From positions 833 through 45,998 of the forward strand of contig JADDQD010000108.1 in the NCBI GenBank assembly GCA_016781555.1: a DNA stretch of 45,166 bases, given 5' to 3'. This DNA comes from Pseudomonadota bacterium. Its GTDB lineage: Bacteria; Pseudomonadota; Alphaproteobacteria; Sphingomonadales; Sphingomonadaceae. Of this stretch, positions 35,866 through 45,166 are shown piece after piece. Position numbers and translations under genes: made by a program. Position 1 is the stretch's first letter. The number at the start of each line of letters is the position of its first letter. Below the pieces are notes generated by a model. The model was not told the DNA's origin. It was given only the letters and a program-made list of their open reading frames with translations, and made no database searches.

Positions 35866-36684
35866 CTAGGCCGCTGGTCGGGCAATCACCGCCGCATAAA
35901 GTGCAATGGCGGCAGCGTTGGAGACGTTGAGGCTTTCCATTCGATCGCTGATCGGCAGGCGCGCCAGCGCGTCGCAGTGGAGTTCGGTGTTCTGGCGCAT
36001 GCCTTCTCCCTCGGCGCCGAGAACCAGTGCGATGCGGGAAGGGCCAAGCGCTTCAGCCAGGCTCATTTCCGCTTCGCCGGTCAGCCCGACGCGCCAGAAG
36101 CCTGCCTCGGCGATCTCATCGAGCGCGCGAGATAGGTTCACGACCCGCACCCAAGGGACTGTTTCGAGCGCCCCACTTGCAGCCTTCGCGAGCGCGCCGG
36201 ACTCGGGCGGCGCATGGCGATCCTGCGTGACGAGCCCGAGCGCGTCAAAAGCCGCGGCTGAGCGGAGGATTGCGCCGACATTGTGGGGATCGGTCACTTG
36301 GTCGAGGACGAGGAGGGGGCGGCCCTCGGGCGCGCCGTCGAGGAGTTCGGCCAGCCAGATGTCTGGAAGCCGCTCCACTTCCGCCACGATACCCTGGTGC
36401 GGGGCGTCGCGCGGGATAAGCCGACCGAGGTCCGCAGCATCGGCGTAGCTGATTTGAACGCCGGCCGGGAATTCGAAATCGGCTGCGGCGTCGTGCGTTA
36501 CCCAGATCTTCGCAATTTTGCGCTCCGGATTGGCAAGCGCAGCGGCAACGGCATGACGGCCCCACAAGCGGGGGCGGTTCTCGGGCTTGCTCGCCTGGCG
36601 GGCTTTGCGGCGCATCGCGCGCTGACATGGCCGCAGCGGCGGCGGCTGGCAAGCATGCGCGTGCGCGTTGCTGCGCCTCAGCAA
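35866..36684 (-). CDS. rlmB: TrmH/SpoU-family 23S rRNA 2'-O-methyltransferase (RlmB)
   Basis: LWGRHAVAAALANPERKI...VLDQVTDPHNVGAILRSAAAFDALGLV...LVLGAEGEGMRQNTELHCDALARLPISDRMESLNVSNAAAIALY; probable start inside the ORF at MRRKARQ. Confidence 0.93.
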   Translation of the reverse strand: MLRRSNAHAHACQPPPLRPCQRAMRRKARQASKPENRPRLWGRHAVAAALANPERKIAKIWVTHDAAADFEFPAGVQISYADAADLGRLIPRDAPHQGIVAEVERLPDIWLAELLDGAPEGRPLLVLDQVTDPHNVGAILRSAAAFDALGLVTQDRHAPPESGALAKAASGALETVPWVRVVNLSRALDEIAEAGFWRVGLTGEAEMSLAEALGPSRIALVLGAEGEGMRQNTELHCDALARLPISDRMESLNVSNAAAIALYAAVIARPAA

Positions 36685-38072
36685 GCCGCGTTGACAGGGG
36701 GCGCCCCTTTCGCCATTGAGCCGCCTTCCCGAAATGGGCCCCGTGGACAGGTGGCCGAGTGGTTAAAGGCAGCAGACTGTAAATCTGCCCGGGTTTCCCG
36801 TACGCTGGTTCGAATCCAGCCCTGTCCACCATCGCTAACCGGCGGATTCACTAGAGAAAGCGCGACAGCGCCATCTCCCCGCGAAGGCTCCCGTTTGGAG
36901 CTCGTGTGTAATTCTGGTGTAACCGTGTCAGAAAACGGGTTCGCGATCCGCTCCGCGGCGAGGTCGATACTTTCGTCGTTGGCATGGATGTAGTGCATCA
37001 CCATGGCGATCGTTTTATGGCCGCTCAGCTCCTGAAGGGTGCGCGGGTCGACCTTATCCCTCGATAGGTTGGTGATAACCGTGTGGCGCATGAGGTGCGG
37101 CGTGACCTTCTCGGGGTCCAGCCCAGCTCGAATCACGGCGCGGCGGAACGAATCATCCATCGACCGGACGTGCGGCGTCTTGCAATGCTGGCGCTTGGCC
37201 GGGAATATCCAGCCTTCAGGATCATCCTCCATCTCGCGCTGCCGCAACAAGGCCTCGCGCACCCAAAGAGGGAAGGGCTGAAGGCGCGCACCGGCCTTTG
37301 CCTTGCCGATCTCGAAGCGATTGGCGTTCCAGTCGATCTCGTCATATCGGCGACGCACGATCTCACCGTGGCGCATGCTGGTGCCGAAGCCCAGAGCCAC
37401 GAATAGCCAAGCCCGCGAGTCCACGTCCTCTATCGCGCCTTTCATTACCGCGCTGATCTCTGCCGGCGTCAATGCTCGGCGTGCCTTCCGCTGCTCCCGA
37501 ACGCGCGGGATCTTTGGCTTGTCCTCTGCCTTCATCCAGCGCCAGTCCTTCGACGACGCCTTGTTGAGCATGTGAAGCAGGGTCGCGAACTCGCGGTTGA
37601 CGGTGGCGTCGGTCGCGCCTCTCGCCACGCGCGCCTTGCGATATTTGCGCAGCTCAAACTCGGTTATCTTGTCGAGCCGCATCTTGCCGAAGTGAGGGGC
37701 AAGGTAGGTGCGCAGATGGTGCTTCTTGTTCGCCATGTCCTTGCCGCCGCTGGCTTCCATGCGCGCGATATATTCCTCGGCGCTTTCCACGAACGTGCGG
37801 TGAAGCTTGCGACCCTGAGGCAAGTTGAGGCGATCACCTCGGGCGTCGGTGCGAAGCTTCTCGATGAGCTGTTCCGCTTGGAACCGGGTCACGCCCTCAG
37901 ACTCCCGGCCGACCACTCGGTGGATGCGCTGGCCGTCAACCATGACGTTGATGCTATAACGAATGTCGCCGTCCTTGGCTTTCTCGGCAGTGATGCCATG
38001 CTCGTGGATCTTCTGTCCCGGATCGAGTGCGCGGATCGCCGGCCTGGAAAGGCGGCTGAACTTAAGAGACAT
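36678..38072 (-). CDS. int: Tyrosine recombinase/phage integrase; ORF runs antisense through tRNA-Tyr
   Basis: SAEEYIARMEASGGKDM...ALGFGTSMRHGEIVRRRYDEID...TPHLMRHTVITNLSRDKVDPRTLQELSGHKTIAMVMHYIH; R..HxxR..Y catalytic pattern; start ATG 38072..38070. Confidence 0.93.
   Translation of the reverse strand: MSLKFSRLSRPAIRALDPGQKIHEHGITAEKAKDGDIRYSINVMVDGQRIHRVVGRESEGVTRFQAEQLIEKLRTDARGDRLNLPQGRKLHRTFVESAEEYIARMEASGGKDMANKKHHLRTYLAPHFGKMRLDKITEFELRKYRKARVARGATDATVNREFATLLHMLNKASSKDWRWMKAEDKPKIPRVREQRKARRALTPAEISAVMKGAIEDVDSRAWLFVALGFGTSMRHGEIVRRRYDEIDWNANRFEIGKAKAGARLQPFPLWVREALLRQREMEDDPEGWIFPAKRQHCKTPHVRSMDDSFRRAVIRAGLDPEKVTPHLMRHTVITNLSRDKVDPRTLQELSGHKTIAMVMHYIHANDESIDLAAERIANPFSDTVTPELHTSSKREPSRGDGAVALSLVNPPVSDGGQGWIRTSVRETRADLQSAAFNHSATCPRGPFREGGSMAKGAPPVNAAC
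36745..36831 (+). tRNA. tRNA-Tyr (GUA), CCA encoded
   Basis: GGACAGGTGGCCGAGTGGTTAAAGGCAGCAGACTGTAAATCTGCCCGGGTTTCCCGTACGCTGGTTCGAATCCAGCCCTGTCCACCA; anticodon GTA, long variable arm. Confidence 0.97.
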
Positions 38073-39003
38073 GTTTCCGGGTCTCCTCGATTGCGGCCAG
38101 TATAAATTCATTCGCGACAGCCGACGCCTGATCATCAGTGCCCGTCAGGAAGCGCTCGGCCTTTTCATGGCTCAAGTGTCCGGAGGCAGCGAAGGACATC
38201 CAGCGTCCGATCCGGTCGCTGTGACGACGCTCTTCCTCTGACGCTGACTGCCTTTCCAGTTCGCTGAGCTTGTCCTGCACCTCGTGCGTCCGACTGCGGG
38301 TCTCCTCTTCTGCCATGAGAACCTCACGGACTCGCTCCATCAACTCACGATCAAATCTCCCGATGATAGTCCGATATTCCTCTTCGGAAGTGTTTCCACG
38401 CATGATCTCGACCACGGCGTCAGTAATCTCCCGTGCCGCTGGGTTGTCTCTGAAGAAGTCTTCTCGCTGCTTGATCGCTTTCTGGTAATCTGCCGTACGA
38501 TCCAGCAGCTCTTTCTTCGCTTCTTGGATTTGGCTGCCCTGCTCGCCGCTTCTTTTCGGCTCGTAGCGACCGAATGTGTCTCGAATGGCTTTCGCCGCAG
38601 CTCGCCAAGTGAGCCAGTCCTCTGTGAACTTCTTTTTAGTGAACCCCTCGATAAGATCGATGGCCGCGCCGATGGTTCGCAGGAATAGCGCCCGGTCTGA
38701 GCTGCCGAAGTACATGTCAGCGAAGAAGGAATTAGAGAGACGCTCAATAATTTCGGTGTCCCACGAGCGACCCTTTTCCTCAGCGGCATCCTTCAACTTG
38801 CGATGAAGCTCTGGCGGGAACATCGTCTGTTCGTGCTCGAAGCTGGAGCGGAGGCGCGCCTCTATTTCCTGCGTCATGGACACTCCACGTTCGGCGGCTG
38901 CCTGCTCGATCGCGGCGCGAAGCTCCGGGTCGGTCCTGATGCCGATCGGCACCGTCTTAACGTGCTCACCCTCTCTGGGTCTGCCGCCTACTCCCTTTGC
39001 CAC
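38062..39003 (-). CDS. Arc/RHH-family DNA-binding protein with long coiled-coil-like C-terminus
   Basis: GIRTDPELRAAIEQAAAERGVSMTQEIEARLRSSFEHEQ ribbon-helix-helix motif; overlaps integrase start by 11 nt. Confidence 0.75.
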   Translation of the reverse strand: MAKGVGGRPREGEHVKTVPIGIRTDPELRAAIEQAAAERGVSMTQEIEARLRSSFEHEQTMFPPELHRKLKDAAEEKGRSWDTEIIERLSNSFFADMYFGSSDRALFLRTIGAAIDLIEGFTKKKFTEDWLTWRAAAKAIRDTFGRYEPKRSGEQGSQIQEAKKELLDRTADYQKAIKQREDFFRDNPAAREITDAVVEIMRGNTSEEEYRTIIGRFDRELMERVREVLMAEEETRSRTHEVQDKLSELERQSASEEERRHSDRIGRWMSFAASGHLSHEKAERFLTGTDDQASAVANEFILAAIEETRKHVS

Positions 39004-40181: not shown

Positions 40182-40540
40182 TGGCCCTCCCGCTCACCGC
40201 TGATGACATTGACCGCCTCGGCAAGTTCCTGGGCATGTTGGGAAGCAGTGCCGACACCGAACGGGCGCTTGCCGGCGCGAAAGCCGATGCGCTGCTTCGC
40301 GACCGCGGCACGGGCTGGGCTGACATCATCGCGGTCCTGAAGCTCTCGGCCGCACGTCCGGACCCATGCCATCGCGCCGATGCTCGCGAGTGCCTTGCCG
40401 TGCTCGGGATCTGGTCCAGCCGGGAGTTGGCATTTTTAACGAACATGGCTCGTCGCCACAGGGCTCCTACGGACGATCAGGCGCAATGGCTGGCCCGACT
40501 TCTCGAGGAAGCGCGTCTCGTCGCGCAGGAGGCTGCCTGA
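40181..40540 (+). CDS. Hypothetical phage-element protein
   Basis: MALPLTADDIDRLGKFLGMLGSS...; ATG at 40181 overlaps upstream TGA. Confidence 0.65.
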   Translation: MALPLTADDIDRLGKFLGMLGSSADTERALAGAKADALLRDRGTGWADIIAVLKLSAARPDPCHRADARECLAVLGIWSSRELAFLTNMARRHRAPTDDQAQWLARLLEEARLVAQEAA

Positions 40541-41421
40541 TGGGCAAGAACAGCCGAGCAGAGAAACCAGACGCTCGCGGGGGCAGCTACTTCCTGCTGC
40601 CTCACTGCTTACTCAAAAGCGAAGCGTGGCGCACAGCGTCTCCCCGCGCGGTCAAGGCGCTGCTTGTCCTCTGTCAGCGCCATAACGGCTTCAACAACGG
40701 GCGCATTGGCATGAGCCTCGAGGAACTGGCGATCGGCATGGACAGCCAGAACCACAAGGGCAACGCCAAGGCACTCGCCGAGCTGCATGCACGCGGGATC
40801 GCCGTGTTGGCACGCAACTATCCGAAAAGCTCGCGCATGGCCCGCGAATATCGCCTCACGTTCGTCCCAACCGAGGGGAGTCCAGCAACTCACGAATACG
40901 TCGAATGGCGTTCCGGCGACCTCGGAACACGAAAAAAGCCCACTGTGGAAACCGCAAAGGAAACATCGTCTTTCATTGCGGAAACCGCAGCAGGCCGGAA
41001 ACTTTCTACTGCGGAAACCACAGCAGCAAAAAACCTGATCGACGCAAAACCGCCATTTTTTCCAAGTGGCTCAGTTGCGGATTCCACAGGACATATAGTT
41101 AGCCATTCTAGGGGTTCTGGTTCCCATCCTTCTCATCCAAGGAGAAAGCAGGGTGGCCCTCGAACATCCACCGCAGCCGATGCGGGGGTCACCTCTGCGG
41201 CACCTTCTGAGGAAGAGCTACGCGAGCGAACGCTTGCCCTGATCCAGCGCCTTGGGCGCGGATCACAGGGGCGACTTGCTGAGAGCGCCGGCATTCCTGG
41301 CGGCACATTGTCCAAGTTCCTTCACAATGGCGGGCCTCTGAACGCTCATGCCCGCATCCGGTTGGCTTGCGCCTTCCCGAAGACGGAGAACGCACACCTC
41401 AGAAACGAAAGGGCTGCATGA
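40540..41421 (+). CDS. Putative replication-initiator-like winged-helix protein with C-terminal HTH-like region
   Basis: MGKNSRAEKPDARGGSYFLLPHCLLKSEAWRTASPRAVKALLVLCQRHNGFNNGRIGMSLEELAIGM...; C-term GRLAESAGIPGGTLSKFLHNGGPL; start ATG 40540 overlapping upstream TGA. Confidence 0.65.
   Translation: MGKNSRAEKPDARGGSYFLLPHCLLKSEAWRTASPRAVKALLVLCQRHNGFNNGRIGMSLEELAIGMDSQNHKGNAKALAELHARGIAVLARNYPKSSRMAREYRLTFVPTEGSPATHEYVEWRSGDLGTRKKPTVETAKETSSFIAETAAGRKLSTAETTAAKNLIDAKPPFFPSGSVADSTGHIVSHSRGSGSHPSHPRRKQGGPRTSTAADAGVTSAAPSEEELRERTLALIQRLGRGSQGRLAESAGIPGGTLSKFLHNGGPLNAHARIRLACAFPKTENAHLRNERAA
40944..41088. repeat. Iteron-like array: palindromic 13-mers on a 33-bp grid
   Basis: TGTGGAAACCGCA 40944-40956; TGCGGAAACCGCA 40977-40989; TGCGGAAACCACA 41010-41022; TGCGGATTCCACA 41076-41088; degenerate AAACCGC at 41047-41053. 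Confidence 0.85.
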
Positions 41422-41789
41422 TGAAGAAGAGCGACGGGGCGAAGATGAGAAAGGCACTACCGAAGGCACCACGGGCGCGAGCTCGGACGAGCGATCCGGA
41501 CACGTCGCATCGAGCGGCCAAATGCGTGACGCCGGCACTCCGCCAGATCCAGCGCGCCGTCCTGGGCTTCGCGGCGGAGAGAGGCGAACAAGGCTTCAGC
41601 GACCTCGATCTTGCAAAACATTTTGACTGCGACGGAAGCACCTACCGGACGCGGCGGGCAGAGCTCAAAAAGCTCGGCCTCATCGAAGACAGCAAAAAGC
41701 GAATTTCGGTTCGGGTGCGTAGCAGTCATGCCGTGTGGAAGATCACGGCCGCGGGGATCAAGGTACACAGGGACGCAGCGAATGACTGA
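41418..41789 (+). CDS. Small winged-helix-like DNA-binding protein
   Basis: MMKKSDGAKMRKALPKAPRARARTSDPDTSHRAAKCVTPALRQIQRAVLGFAAERGEQGFSDLDLAKHFDCDGSTYRTRRAELKKLGLIEDS. Confidence 0.7.
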   Translation: MMKKSDGAKMRKALPKAPRARARTSDPDTSHRAAKCVTPALRQIQRAVLGFAAERGEQGFSDLDLAKHFDCDGSTYRTRRAELKKLGLIEDSKKRISVRVRSSHAVWKITAAGIKVHRDAAND

Positions 41790-42594
41790 TACGAAACGGA
41801 AGAAGCGGGCTCCGGCGAAGGAGAAGCAGGCCGCGCCGCCGCATGAACCCACAGAGCGGGAAATCGAGCAGAGGGAAATCCTGCGTGCTCGCAATCTCCA
41901 GCGTCCAGATCGCCCGTCGTCAAAGATCGAAATGGAGGGTTCCGTTCGCGTCGTCCGTCACGCGGATGATCAAGACCCGAAGCTCTACAGCGCCGCCATG
42001 CTCGAAGCGTTCGGCACAACCTCGATGCCATTTCTAAATCAGACGCTGGACAACATCCAACGGGGCACATGCCAGAGCGTTGCCAACTTCACCGAGAAGC
42101 AGAACGACGCCGCGATAGCGATCCTCGCCGCCGTGGAACCACAGAACGAGCTAGAGGCCACGCTGGCGGCCCAGATGGTGATCGCGAATGAGGCGGCGAT
42201 GCGCTGCATGCGCTCCATGATCGGGGCTGAGTGGGTTCCGCAGCATCAGATGTATGGGAACCTCGCGAACAAGTTCATGCGGACATTCACCGCACAGGTC
42301 GAAGCTCTGGCAAAGCTCCGGCGCAAAGGCGAACAGGTGGTCAAGCACGTGCACGTCCACGAAGGCGGGCAAGCGGTCGTGGATAGCACGATCAACCAAT
42401 ATAGGGGGGGTGGGGTAGATGGAAGAAGTGACGGACAACCGTATGGAGCCGGAACCGCTGCGGAATGCGCCGCGCTGTCTGGCCCAGACCCGGCGCGGGA
42501 CGGAGTGCCGCTCCCCTGCCATGCCGAACGGGAGATGTCGCCTTCATGGCGGGAAGTCACCGGGGCCTCCACTGGGGAACCAGAATGCTCGTAA
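41782..42594 (+). CDS. Conserved hypothetical phage-element protein; probable frame change at G7 tract
   Basis: MTDTKRKKRAPAKEKQ...QMVIANEAAMRCMRSMIGAEWVPQHQMYGNLANKFMRTFTAQVEALAKLRRKGEQVVKHVHVHEGGQAVVDS; downstream of 42410 it overlaps the next ORF. Confidence 0.65.
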   Translation: MTDTKRKKRAPAKEKQAAPPHEPTEREIEQREILRARNLQRPDRPSSKIEMEGSVRVVRHADDQDPKLYSAAMLEAFGTTSMPFLNQTLDNIQRGTCQSVANFTEKQNDAAIAILAAVEPQNELEATLAAQMVIANEAAMRCMRSMIGAEWVPQHQMYGNLANKFMRTFTAQVEALAKLRRKGEQVVKHVHVHEGGQAVVDSTINQYRGGGVDGRSDGQPYGAGTAAECAALSGPDPARDGVPLPCHAEREMSPSWREVTGASTGEPECS

Positions 42595-42679
42595 ACACGG
42601 GCTCAGATCGGCAGAGTTCGTCCAGCTGCGTGCAGAAGCGCGGCAGCTCCAACGTGCGCTGATCGAGGCTATGCGGTGA
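42419..42679 (+). CDS. HGG-motif small phage/prophage protein
   Basis: RCLAQTRRGTECRSPAMPNGRCRLHGGKSPGPPLGNQNARKHGLRS, a motif common next to prophage DNA-packaging genes. Confidence 0.75.
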   Translation: MEEVTDNRMEPEPLRNAPRCLAQTRRGTECRSPAMPNGRCRLHGGKSPGPPLGNQNARKHGLRSAEFVQLRAEARQLQRALIEAMR

Positions 42680-42994: not shown

Positions 42995-43149
42995 GCAGGG
43001 ACGCGTAATGCCTGGTGATGAAGACAGTTCTGGATTGACATTTGTCTAAAATCCTGCTATAGTGCGGCTTCATCACTGATTGGGCGAAAGCTCGTTTCCG
43101 GTTCGGCGGCCATTGGCCTCCGGGCCTTTTTGCGTTGGGGGGGAATGCC

Positions 43150-43299
43150 ATGCGGCAGGCAATGCAGAACAGAATGGTCTGGTTTCGTGCTCCCGAAGTG
43201 CTGGTGAGCAAGATCGAAGCAAAATCGCAGTCCGAGGGAATGAGTATTTCCGAGTATCTTCGTGACTTGGCTCGGCGCGACGTGCGGGATGCCGCGTGA
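43150..43299 (+). CDS. 49-aa ribbon-helix-helix (CopG/Arc-like) protein
   Basis: MRQAMQNRMVWFRAPEVLVSKIEAKSQSEGMSISEYLRDLARRDVRDAA; ATG of next gene overlaps its TGA; below track length cutoff. Confidence 0.7.
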   Translation: MRQAMQNRMVWFRAPEVLVSKIEAKSQSEGMSISEYLRDLARRDVRDAA

Positions 43300-43943
43300 T
43301 GGCCGATCCTGTCTTTGACGCCACGGCAAGCACTGATGAGGTCGGGGCCCATTACCTCGGTGGCAGCCCCGAAGCTGAAACCGAACTTCTCGCGCGGGCC
43401 GGTGCCGGCGAGATCGAAGCGCAGCGGTTCTTTCTGACTGCGGCGACAGCCGCGTTCCTCGCGCAGGACGAAGGGCAGGAAGCTTATCTTGCCGCTGCCG
43501 AGGTTTTTGGCCGACTGGCTGCCGCTCGTGGCGGTGGAGAAGACCGACGCCGCCTAGCCAGTCTCCTCTCGCTCCAGGCCTCCCATAGCCGGACCATGAT
43601 GCGTCCGGAGTTCGCGCTTGGCTGTGAGACGGAATGCCTGCTGATCCTCAACAAGCTGGCCGATGAGGGAGACGAGGAAGCCGCCAAAGCCGTTGGTGCG
43701 TTCGCGGAGGAGTTTTCCGAAGAGGCCGTCAAAGCCGCGGCACTGAGCGCAAAGCAAGATCGTGCGACCGTCGTGTCGATTGCTCCACCGCCGAGCGAGC
43801 CTGACTTTGCCGCGCTGATCGCTTCTCTGCCGCCGCTGACACGATGGGATCTGGTGAGGTTCTGGTTTTCGGATCGGCTTTGGGACGTGCGGCTCGCGTG
43901 GTGGGACTTCAAGGACAAGATGAGCGCCCGGTTGGCGCGCTGA
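43299..43943 (+). CDS. Hypothetical phage-element protein with Sel1-like helical repeats
   Basis: LARAGAGEIEAQRFFLTAATAAFLAQDEGQEAYLAAAEVFGRLAAARGG...LADEGDEEAAKAVGAFAEE. Confidence 0.6.
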   Translation: MADPVFDATASTDEVGAHYLGGSPEAETELLARAGAGEIEAQRFFLTAATAAFLAQDEGQEAYLAAAEVFGRLAAARGGGEDRRRLASLLSLQASHSRTMMRPEFALGCETECLLILNKLADEGDEEAAKAVGAFAEEFSEEAVKAAALSAKQDRATVVSIAPPPSEPDFAALIASLPPLTRWDLVRFWFSDRLWDVRLAWWDFKDKMSARLAR

Positions 43944-43968: not shown

Positions 43969-45166
43969 ATGGGTTTGTTTGGATCGGTCGGGCAGATGTT
44001 CGACGGCAAGCCGGGGTCACCAATCGAGGATTGGCTGCGGCAACAAGGGATCATGGCCGCAACGCCAGGGATCGGGAATGACATAATCGTGACTGGTCCA
44101 CAGCCGCGAGGTCTCTTCGGCAACACTTCCCTCGCTGCGCCTGCTGGCATCGGAAGCCCATCATACACAACGCCCGGCATCAACCCGGATGCTCCGCAGC
44201 CCGCGGGTTCGCTGGGTGGCCCAGGCGGATTGCTTCCCAGTCCGTCCGCGCCCTTGACCGGCGAGATTGGCGCGCCGCGTCACTCTGTCCCGAGCAGCAT
44301 TCCTCCGCAGGCTGGTCCTGCCTCTGGCGGGTTCCGTGGGATGGAAAGCATCCGGGATGAGCAGCCGCCGAAGAAGAAGGGCTCTCCTTTCCTCCGGGGT
44401 CTCGGCCGCGTCCTTCGGGAGATCGGGCACAGTGCGCCTGAGATGCAGGCGATGATGAACGGCGACTATTCCGCTGCCGCTCGGTTCCGCGAGATGCACG
44501 ATGAAAGGCACGGCAAGGAGACGGAATCAAAGCGCGTGGGAGAGCTCCAGCGCCAAGCCTTCGATTATCTCGTCCGAACCCGTGGCGTCGATCCGAGGCA
44601 GGCCATGATGATGGTCCAAGACGTGAAGAGCCTCGCTACCGAATGGAACACGCAAGAGCGCACCCGCGACCTCGCTCCAGGCCACACTGTCCGGAACCCG
44701 AATGGCGAGACCTACACGGCTCCCAAAACATTCGAAAACGGGCCGAACGTCTACGAGTACGATCCGCAGGCCGGCCCTCCGCAGCTTATCTTTCAAGGCC
44801 AGACGGATGCTCAGCGGGCAGTGGAGGAGTCGGGTTATGAGCCCGGCTCTCCACAAGCCTTCAACTTCCTGCGCGACTACCATCTCGACGGGCAGGGTCC
44901 GACCGCAGTCCAGATGCAGCAATCGCAGCTCGGGGTCCAAAGACGAGGACAGGACATGGGCGCGGAGACCGCTCGGCGCGGGCAAGACGTGAGCCGGACC
45001 AATAGCGAACGTGCCGCCGGAACTGCTCGCTACAACCGTGACAACACTCCAGTTTCGAGGGTCGTCAACGAGCGCGGCGAGGTTGTCGTGACCTATGCGA
45101 ATGGGCGTGTGCAGACGCTGCGGAACTCACGGCCGATGTCGCCGAGTCGCGGTGGGCGTGCTGGTC
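43969..45166 (+). CDS. Large phage-virion-like protein (Gly/Pro/Gln-rich), runs off right edge
   Basis: Open frame MGLFGSVGQMFDGKPGSPIEDWLRQQG...LQRQAFDYLVRTRGVDPRQAMMMVQDVKSLATEWN...VQMQQSQLGVQRRGQDMGAETARRGQDVSRTNSERAAGTARYNRDNTPVSRVVNERGEVVV; no stop before 45166, so absent from the track. Confidence 0.65.
   Translation, partial: MGLFGSVGQMFDGKPGSPIEDWLRQQGIMAATPGIGNDIIVTGPQPRGLFGNTSLAAPAGIGSPSYTTPGINPDAPQPAGSLGGPGGLLPSPSAPLTGEIGAPRHSVPSSIPPQAGPASGGFRGMESIRDEQPPKKKGSPFLRGLGRVLREIGHSAPEMQAMMNGDYSAAARFREMHDERHGKETESKRVGELQRQAFDYLVRTRGVDPRQAMMMVQDVKSLATEWNTQERTRDLAPGHTVRNPNGETYTAPKTFENGPNVYEYDPQAGPPQLIFQGQTDAQRAVEESGYEPGSPQAFNFLRDYHLDGQGPTAVQMQQSQLGVQRRGQDMGAETARRGQDVSRTNSERAAGTARYNRDNTPVSRVVNERGEVVVTYANGRVQTLRNSRPMSPSRGGRAG

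What the first reader, a model, noticed from the sequence alone, without database searches (positions are those of the whole stretch)
40944..41088. Lambda-O-like origin: palindromic iterons on an exact 33-bp grid inside a putative initiator gene
Seen: four 13-mers with TGYGG-(3)-CCRCA dyad symmetry start at 40944, 40977, 41010 and 41076 (steps 33, 33, 66), and a decayed AAACCGC lies near the missing grid position. 33 bp is about three helical turns, so the sites lie on one DNA face; in protein they form an 11-residue repeat (TVETAKETSSF/IAETAAGRKLS/TAETTAAKNLI). AT-rich patches (CAGCAAAAAACC, CATTTTTTCC, ACATATAGTTAG) lie among and just after them in GC-rich DNA. The host ORF has a winged-helix-like N-terminus and an HTH-like C-terminus with the array in the linker. 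Knowledge: lambda gene O carries its palindromic iterons in mid-gene and binds them via its N-terminal domain. Inference: this ORF is the element's initiator and the array its origin.
Basis: partly seen in the sequence, partly recalled or inferred. Interest (0 to 1): 0.78.

Follow-up and report, generated by a model that had tools for sequence, protein, structure and literature searches.

The report
Satellite replication origin inside its initiator gene
An integrated mobile element carries a gene whose protein very probably starts the element's own DNA replication by binding four small palindromes written inside that gene, and the same layout recurs in dozens of related elements whose palindromes have changed letters but kept their spacing.

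Summary
Four TGYGG-N3-CCRCA palindromes lie at 40944, 40977, 41010 and 41076 in the 293-aa gene 40540-41421. I found 146 distinct homologues in genomes and viral contigs. In 81 of 142 testable ones a palindrome array at the same place beats all 100 shuffles. The spacing recurs (33-33-66, 33-33-57, 22-53-44 and others, near whole helical turns) while the palindrome letters differ: 13 different half-sites in the 33-33-x class alone. Synonymous recoding destroys the arrays, and some lie wholly after the stop codon, so the constraint is on DNA. A conserved AT-rich element (window 41091-41106, ACATATAGTTAGCCAT) follows the last palindrome. The "decayed iteron" is rather a separate conserved box, GGCGGAAAWCCGCC (window 41041-41054). 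The protein has a lambda-O/RepA_N-like winged helix, a disordered linker encoded by the array, and a C-terminal HTH. Genes nearby point to phage-satellite-like islands. Best reading: initiator plus embedded origin, working like lambda O or pSK41 RepA but failing their Pfam membership tests. This is a new, widespread variant of a known kind. Binding and replication are untested.

The parts
40540..41421 (+). initiator gene, 293 aa, with the putative origin inside it
   Evidence: ORF; 33 of 401 genomes of the order, 39 of 401 of the family, 20 of 387 of the class and 21 of 299 of the phylum hold homologues; 146 distinct homologues
40597..40929 (+). N-terminal winged-helix domain (about residues 20-130), predicted iteron-binding domain
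   Evidence: AlphaFold2 pLDDT mostly above 90; hhalign to lambda O N-domain 95.5%; best PDB folds are RepA_N initiators, weak E
40944..40956 (+). iteron 1, TGTGGAAACCGCA
40977..40989 (+). iteron 2, TGCGGAAACCGCA (perfect dyad arms)
41010..41022 (+). iteron 3, TGCGGAAACCACA
   Evidence: same box at -50 to -54 (33-33-x class) or -40 to -42 (54-57 class) from the AT element in relatives with other iterons
41076..41088 (+). iteron 4, TGCGGATTCCACA
41091..41106 (+). conserved AT-rich element ACATATAGTTAGCCAT, putative DNA unwinding element
   Evidence: only match in window with up to 2 mismatches, 0.04 expected; ATA-N2-8-CCA[TGA] after an iteron in 65 of 92 arrays, shuffled rate 4.7% per site
41209..41415 (+). 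C-terminal helix-turn-helix domain (about residues 224-292)
   Evidence: AlphaFold2 pLDDT mostly above 90
36678..38135 (-). tyrosine integrase of the element, overlapping tRNA-Tyr
   Evidence: PF00589 2.3e-25; phrog_1 1.5e-51
36745..36831 (+). tRNA-Tyr(GTA), likely attachment site
   Evidence: ARAGORN; right att copy not found up to the contig end
39140..39391 (+). excisionase-like small HTH protein
   Evidence: phrog_66 excisionase 2.8e-5; related small HTH genes precede rep in other loci
41421..41789 (+). next gene, 122-aa winged-helix-like protein overlapping the rep stop codon
   Evidence: phrog_1123 (unknown function) 1.9e-13; weak Replic_Relax 0.0025 and DnaD-like loader 0.015

Best explanation
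The gene 40540-41421 encodes the replication initiator of an integrative, phage-satellite-like island, and bases 40944-41106 are its origin. A dimer of the N-terminal winged helix binds each palindrome; four bound sites, roughly in helical phase, build a nucleoprotein complex; the compact AT-rich element next to the last site melts; host (or helper-phage) helicase is then recruited. The invariant GGCGGAAAWCCGCC box between sites 3 and 4 probably docks a host or conserved factor. Shown by computation: sites, spacing rule, DNA-level constraint, AT element, box, fold class. Inferred: dimer binding, melting, helicase recruitment, the box's partner, satellite lifestyle.
For: Arrays at the homologous position in 81 of 142 relatives beating 100 of 100 shuffles; random windows of the same loci 4 of 80 against 53 of 80 at the target (40 shuffles), and the method recovers lambda's annotated iterons. 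13 different half-sites under one 33-33-x spacing, N-domain identity down to 27%. 56 of 62 coding arrays unmatched by 200 synonymous recodings; 30 of 92 arrays lie partly or wholly beyond the stop codon. Steps cluster near 22, 33, 44, 54, 66; periodicity R 0.62 in arrays reaching past the stop codon, 0 of 2000 uniform draws. AT element in 65 of 92 arrays, 58 of 65 at 2-8 bp from an iteron end. Box at fixed distances. Fold and homology to O/RepA_N/DnaD initiators. Integrase cluster in 64 of the analysed loci. Same layout in Pseudomonas record PP003913, annotated 'replication protein O'.
Against: No binding, melting or replication data. The window protein itself matches no Pfam or NCBIfam family, and its PDB fold hits are weak (best E 0.016). 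No helicase, helicase loader or primase was recognised in the window element. About 40 of 142 homologues show no significant array at this sensitivity. The test for co-variation between domain residues and half-sites did not single out the recognition helix. The right end of the element was not found.
Confidence: 0.84

Rival explanations
1. The protein is a transcription regulator: the palindromes are operators and CATATAnnTAnCCAT is the -10 region of a promoter for the downstream satellite genes.
For: Winged helices of MarR, IclR and Crp type are the generic hits for many members; TATAGT could be a -10 hexamer; the last palindrome would sit near the spacer/-35 region.
Against: No -35 is found there: the promoter scan gives nothing at the site. 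The bases just upstream are the variable palindrome, and conservation runs on into CCAT where a start site would lie. Homology and fold favour initiators. Three of the four sites lie roughly 70-150 bp upstream of the element.
Confidence: 0.1
2. The array is a partition or segregation site (parS-like) and the protein a centromere-binding protein.
For: Spaced palindromes bound by an HTH protein of a mobile element also fit a centromere; a ribbon-helix-helix protein with partition-type PHROG hits lies at 38062-39003.
Against: No ParA ATPase was recognised near the gene; integrated islands of this size rarely need partition (general knowledge); the AT element next to the sites fits melting better.
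Confidence: 0.03
3. Peptide-level repeat: the linker repeats are selected as protein and the DNA palindromes are a by-product.
For: About half of the coding copies sit in one reading phase and encode similar 11-mers.
Against: Synonymous recodings do not reproduce the arrays; other phases and post-stop arrays occur; the linker is predicted disordered; in pSK41 the equivalent linker is dispensable (PMC5703833).
Confidence: 0.03

Closest known systems
Lambda gene O / ori-lambda (PF04492, TIGR01610)
   Same: N-terminal winged helix with profile similarity 95.5%; about four palindromic iterons in mid-gene starting about 350-400 nt from the ATG; AT-rich DNA just downstream; half-sites differ between lambda, P22, phi80 and HK446 relatives
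   Different: Lambdoid iterons step 20-24 bp; here 33-33-66, 22-53-44 and so on. Here a short conserved AT element and, in Sphingomonadales, a GGCGGAAAWCCGCC box. Most lambdoid relatives fetched have P or a DnaB-type helicase next door; none was recognised here. The window protein does not match the family model.
RepA_N initiators of Gram-positive plasmids (pSK41, pTZ2162) and V. cholerae PLE RepA (PF06970)
   Same: Three-part protein, NTD binds four boxes found centrally within rep, central linker encoded by the origin and dispensable, genus-specific CTD (PMC5703833); best PDB folds 4pql, 5kbj, 4pt7
   Different: No PF06970 match; E-values weak; Pseudomonadota; PLE's origin lies in a separate non-coding region (PMC7145576)
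Gram-negative PICIs and cf-PICI-like satellites
   Same: Integrase, excisionase/AlpA-like gene, then rep and origin; origin can lie just 3' of rep; some relatives add HNH, TerL, HK97 capsid, protease or portal
   Different: PICI origins have two iteron sets flanking the AT region and pri-rep proteins (PMC6092414); here one set on the 5' side and an O/RepA_N-like protein
RepC of alphaproteobacterial repABC plasmids
   Same: oriV inside the initiator gene (PMC3155836)
   Different: RepC origin is a large A+T-rich region without iterons

Membership tests
Lambda O (PF04492 / TIGR01610) | match to the family model | tested here: not met
   Window protein: no PF04492 hit at E<=1; no NCBIfam hit at E<=0.01. 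1 of 40 relatives matches PF04492 at 7.6e-5 and 1 TIGR01610 at 1.3e-5
Lambda O (PF04492 / TIGR01610) | N-terminal DNA-binding domain related to O | tested here: met
   hhalign 95.5%, E 1.6e-8 over 90 columns; part of this may be generic winged-helix similarity
Lambda O (PF04492 / TIGR01610) | palindromic iterons mid-gene followed by AT-rich DNA | tested here: met
   spacing differs from lambda
Lambda O (PF04492 / TIGR01610) | partner helicase loader P or DnaB encoded next door | tested here: not met
   none recognised among the window genes scanned
Lambda O (PF04492 / TIGR01610) | protein binds iterons and opens the origin | not testable with these tools
   needs EMSA, footprint, replication assay
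RepA_N (PF06970) | match to the family model | tested here: not met
   no PF06970 hit in the window protein (E<=1) or in 40 relatives at E<=0.01
RepA_N (PF06970) | RepA_N-type fold of the N-domain | tested here: inconclusive
   top five PDB hits are RepA_N proteins, TM about 0.53-0.56 over the target, but E 0.016-0.046
RepA_N (PF06970) | origin inside rep, encoded by the linker | tested here: met
   iterons fall in codons of the disordered linker 137-217 and its edge
PICI / phage satellite | integrase, excision regulator and replication module in a small island | tested here: met
   island size unknown because the right end was not found
PICI / phage satellite | induced and packaged by a helper phage | not testable with these tools
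   needs induction experiments
PICI / phage satellite | two iteron sets flanking the AT region | tested here: not met
   one set, 5' of the AT element

The most novel reading that the evidence does not exclude
A widespread, undescribed class of satellite origins in Pseudomonadota: element-specific palindromes that change letters like a lock while their helically phased spacing, an invariant CATATAnnTAnCCAT element and (in Sphingomonadales) an invariant box GGCGGAAAWCCGCC stay fixed, giving each island its own replication specificity but one shared host docking platform. The array can sit inside or after the gene without changing the layout.
Probability: 0.55. Interest if true: 0.75.

Novelty: new variant of a known kind. 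Interest (0 to 1): 0.62.

Why it matters
Origins of many chromosomal islands and satellites are unknown, in part because their iterons share no sequence. This family gives a rule (palindrome array at fixed helical steps, then CATATAnnTAnCCAT, right after an O/RepA_N-like domain) that locates an origin from sequence alone in many Pseudomonadota, suggests which islands can coexist, and offers a natural series of initiator/iteron pairs for studying how a winged helix changes specificity. It also poses a direct question: which factor reads the invariant box and element, and how is helicase loaded without a recognised loader gene.

Tried and rejected
First array scan seemed to place palindromes upstream of the gene in several loci; this was an orientation error, corrected. 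Idea that the 66-bp step hides a decayed iteron: rejected, since 28 relatives share the long last step and the gaps contain no excess of exact half-sites (1 found, 2.9 expected). Co-variation of N-domain residues with half-sites (67 arrays): signal spread over the domain, not focused on the recognition helix, probably relatedness; inconclusive. Search for attR by similarity to the tRNA-Tyr region: nothing convincing. Viral-contig scan with the window's own 17-mer: 70 stretches, each with a single match, no array. Single-protein viral scan: no relatives. Plasmid tblastn with the window protein: none. Alignment A1 was too diverse for the search for related loci; subset A2 worked. The first, cruder array score gave 34 of 99; the refined score is the one used.

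Full report
OBSERVATION. The four dyad 13-mers exist at the stated positions with steps 33, 33 and 66. TGYGGNNNCCRCA is expected 0.38 times per window by chance; four of its five matches fall within 145 bp. The host gene is 40540-41421 (293 aa; the ORF could also start at 40366). In frame the repeats encode TVETAKETSSF/IAETAAGRKLS/TAETTAAKNLI. The array beats 100 of 100 dinucleotide shuffles (z 8.3) and 0 of 200 synonymous recodings reach it.

HOMOLOGUES. tblastn of 50,697 phage records with the window protein finds one hit, a 16-kb Pseudomonas record (vB_Pae_U1, 'replication protein O'); 72,556 plasmids give none. Bacterial genomes hold many: 33 of 401 genomes of the order, and with a profile of 30 N-domains (A1) 39 of 401 of the family, 20 of 387 of the class and 21 of 299 of the phylum. 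A scan of GTDB genomes named Sphingopyxis, Novosphingobium, Sphingomonas, Sphingobium, Erythrobacter, Azospirillum, Devosia and others; 13 viral contigs, most of them 7-17 kb, also carry it. After removing duplicates there are 146 homologues. The window's own genome holds two more matches.

ARRAYS. A de novo search for families of similar dyads, not told what letters to expect, was run on 450 bp after the N-domain of each homologue. In 81 of 142 no shuffle of 100 reached the score, in 92 at most four did. Control windows elsewhere in the same loci: 4 of 80 beat 40 shuffles against 53 of 80 at the target; lambda O and the O genes of P22, phi80, HK446, phiEt88 and others serve as positive controls, and lambda's annotated iterons were recovered. 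Spacing classes recur: 33-33-x (28 members, x = 45 to 78), 22-53-x (21), 22-43-x (8), 54-57, 42-57. The 33-33-x class alone has 13 different half-sites with N-domain identity down to 27%. So spacing and symmetry outlast both protein and letters; the letters do not persist.

DNA, NOT PROTEIN. 56 of 62 coding arrays are unmatched by 200 synonymous recodings, and 61 of 62 by all but at most two (these arrays were pre-selected as significant against shuffles, a different null). Sixty-seven of 360 palindromes lie after the stop codon, and 30 of 92 arrays lie partly or wholly beyond it. Steps cluster near 22, 33, 44, 54 and 66 bp; in pairs whose second member lies past the stop codon the periodicity at 10-11.5 bp has R 0.62 against a mean of 0.23 for uniform steps, 0 of 2000. 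Related members are not independent, so these p-values are indicative.

TWO CONSERVED ELEMENTS. Directly after the last palindrome stands an AT-rich element of about 15 bp, ATA-N2-8-CCA[TGA] (often CATATAnnTAnCCAT): 65 of 92 arrays carry it after the last or last-but-one palindrome, against 4.7% of shuffled 42-bp segments per site; 58 of 65 lie 2-8 bp from the iteron end; 18 of 30 arrays that reach past the stop codon keep it. AT content rises to 0.67 there from about 0.45 around it (the regex itself contributes to this rise). In the window it is ACATATAGTTAGCCAT, 41091-41106 (0.04 expected at up to 2 mismatches). The gap before the last palindrome holds a second box, consensus GGCGGAAAWCCGCC, at -50 to -54 from the AT element in most of the 33-33-x class (19 of 26 above the shuffled 95% level) and at -40 to -42 in the 54-57 class, independent of the iteron letters. 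The matrix was trained on these same sequences; the fixed distances are the independent part.

PROTEIN. AlphaFold2 with 40 sequences gives a confident winged helix (about 20-130), a disordered linker (137-217) and a C-terminal helical domain (224-292). Best PDB folds are RepA_N initiators (4pql, 5kbj, 4pt7; E 0.016 and up, so weak); viral hits include proteins named lambda O N-terminal. Profile-profile comparison with nine O N-domains gives 95.5%, E 1.6e-8. Of 30 N-domains, 17 match a PHROG of DnaD-like loaders, 15 a replication initiation PHROG and 10 an O-like PHROG. Many also match generic winged-helix families, so homology alone does not prove initiation.

SURROUNDINGS. Integrase over tRNA-Tyr, a ribbon-helix-helix protein, an excisionase-like gene, small unknown genes, rep, then a winged-helix gene. 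Across the loci with enough flank an integrase cluster appears in 64, usually about 3 kb upstream of rep; some relatives continue with HNH, TerL, HK97 capsid, prohead protease or portal, others with restriction-type genes. This resembles cf-PICI-like and other phage satellites. Satellite status is inferred; no helper was sought.

MECHANISM. By analogy with lambda O (iterons plus AT tract mid-gene, PMC7466680) and pSK41 RepA (NTD binds four boxes inside rep, linker dispensable, PMC5703833), a winged-helix dimer fills each palindrome, the phased complex melts the AT element, and helicase is loaded by the host or helper. Shown: sites, layout, constraint, fold. Inferred: everything dynamic. The strongest rival, an operator-promoter cluster, is disfavoured by the absence of a recognisable promoter at the site, by conservation running through CCAT, and by the fold.

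MEMBERSHIP AND NOVELTY. The window protein fails the Pfam/NCBIfam models of both lambda O and RepA_N, has no recognised P/DnaB partner, and its origin lacks the two-set layout of PICIs. It works like an O/RepA_N initiator but is not filed as a member. Within the open-access papers searched no description of this origin family was found; subscription papers and preprints were not searchable.

Noticed in passing
G000:C254:5372-5761 (L148) and G000:C162:1911-2300: Two further initiator homologues in the window's own genome; L148 carries a different array (GGCGCGCTACCGCGCC, steps 23, 35, 26), so co-resident islands have different iterons.
   Followed up: partly
window end, about 45100-45166 and just beyond on the contig: ORF 43969-45279 ends in a long poly-lysine stretch, i.e. 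a long A-run near the window end; possibly an assembly artefact.
   Followed up: no
43035-43063 (+): Near-perfect sigma-70 promoter match TTGACA-17-TATAGT with an extended -10 TG, about 230 bp before gene 43296-43943.
   Followed up: no
42419-42679 (+): Small HGGKS-motif protein with weak similarity to small terminase subunits (phrog_1889, 1.7e-5).
   Followed up: no
41782-42594 (+): Protein with HVHEGGQAVV motif; related genes follow rep in 13 loci, no Pfam or PHROG match above chance; a possible conserved partner.
   Followed up: partly
L178 4160-4310 (PP003913): Pseudomonas aeruginosa 16-kb record with four perfect GTACAGAAACTGTAC palindromes (steps 22, 54, 35) after 'replication protein O', ending in TTAGATATACCAGG.
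   Followed up: yes
family-wide half-sites: Half-sites share a loose family consensus (T at the sixth base from the dyad centre in 45 of 67, G at the fifth in 36 of 67) despite their diversity.
   Followed up: partly
38062-39003 (-): 313-aa protein with two ribbon-helix-helix motifs (Arc-like), possible island repressor or partition-type protein.
   Followed up: no
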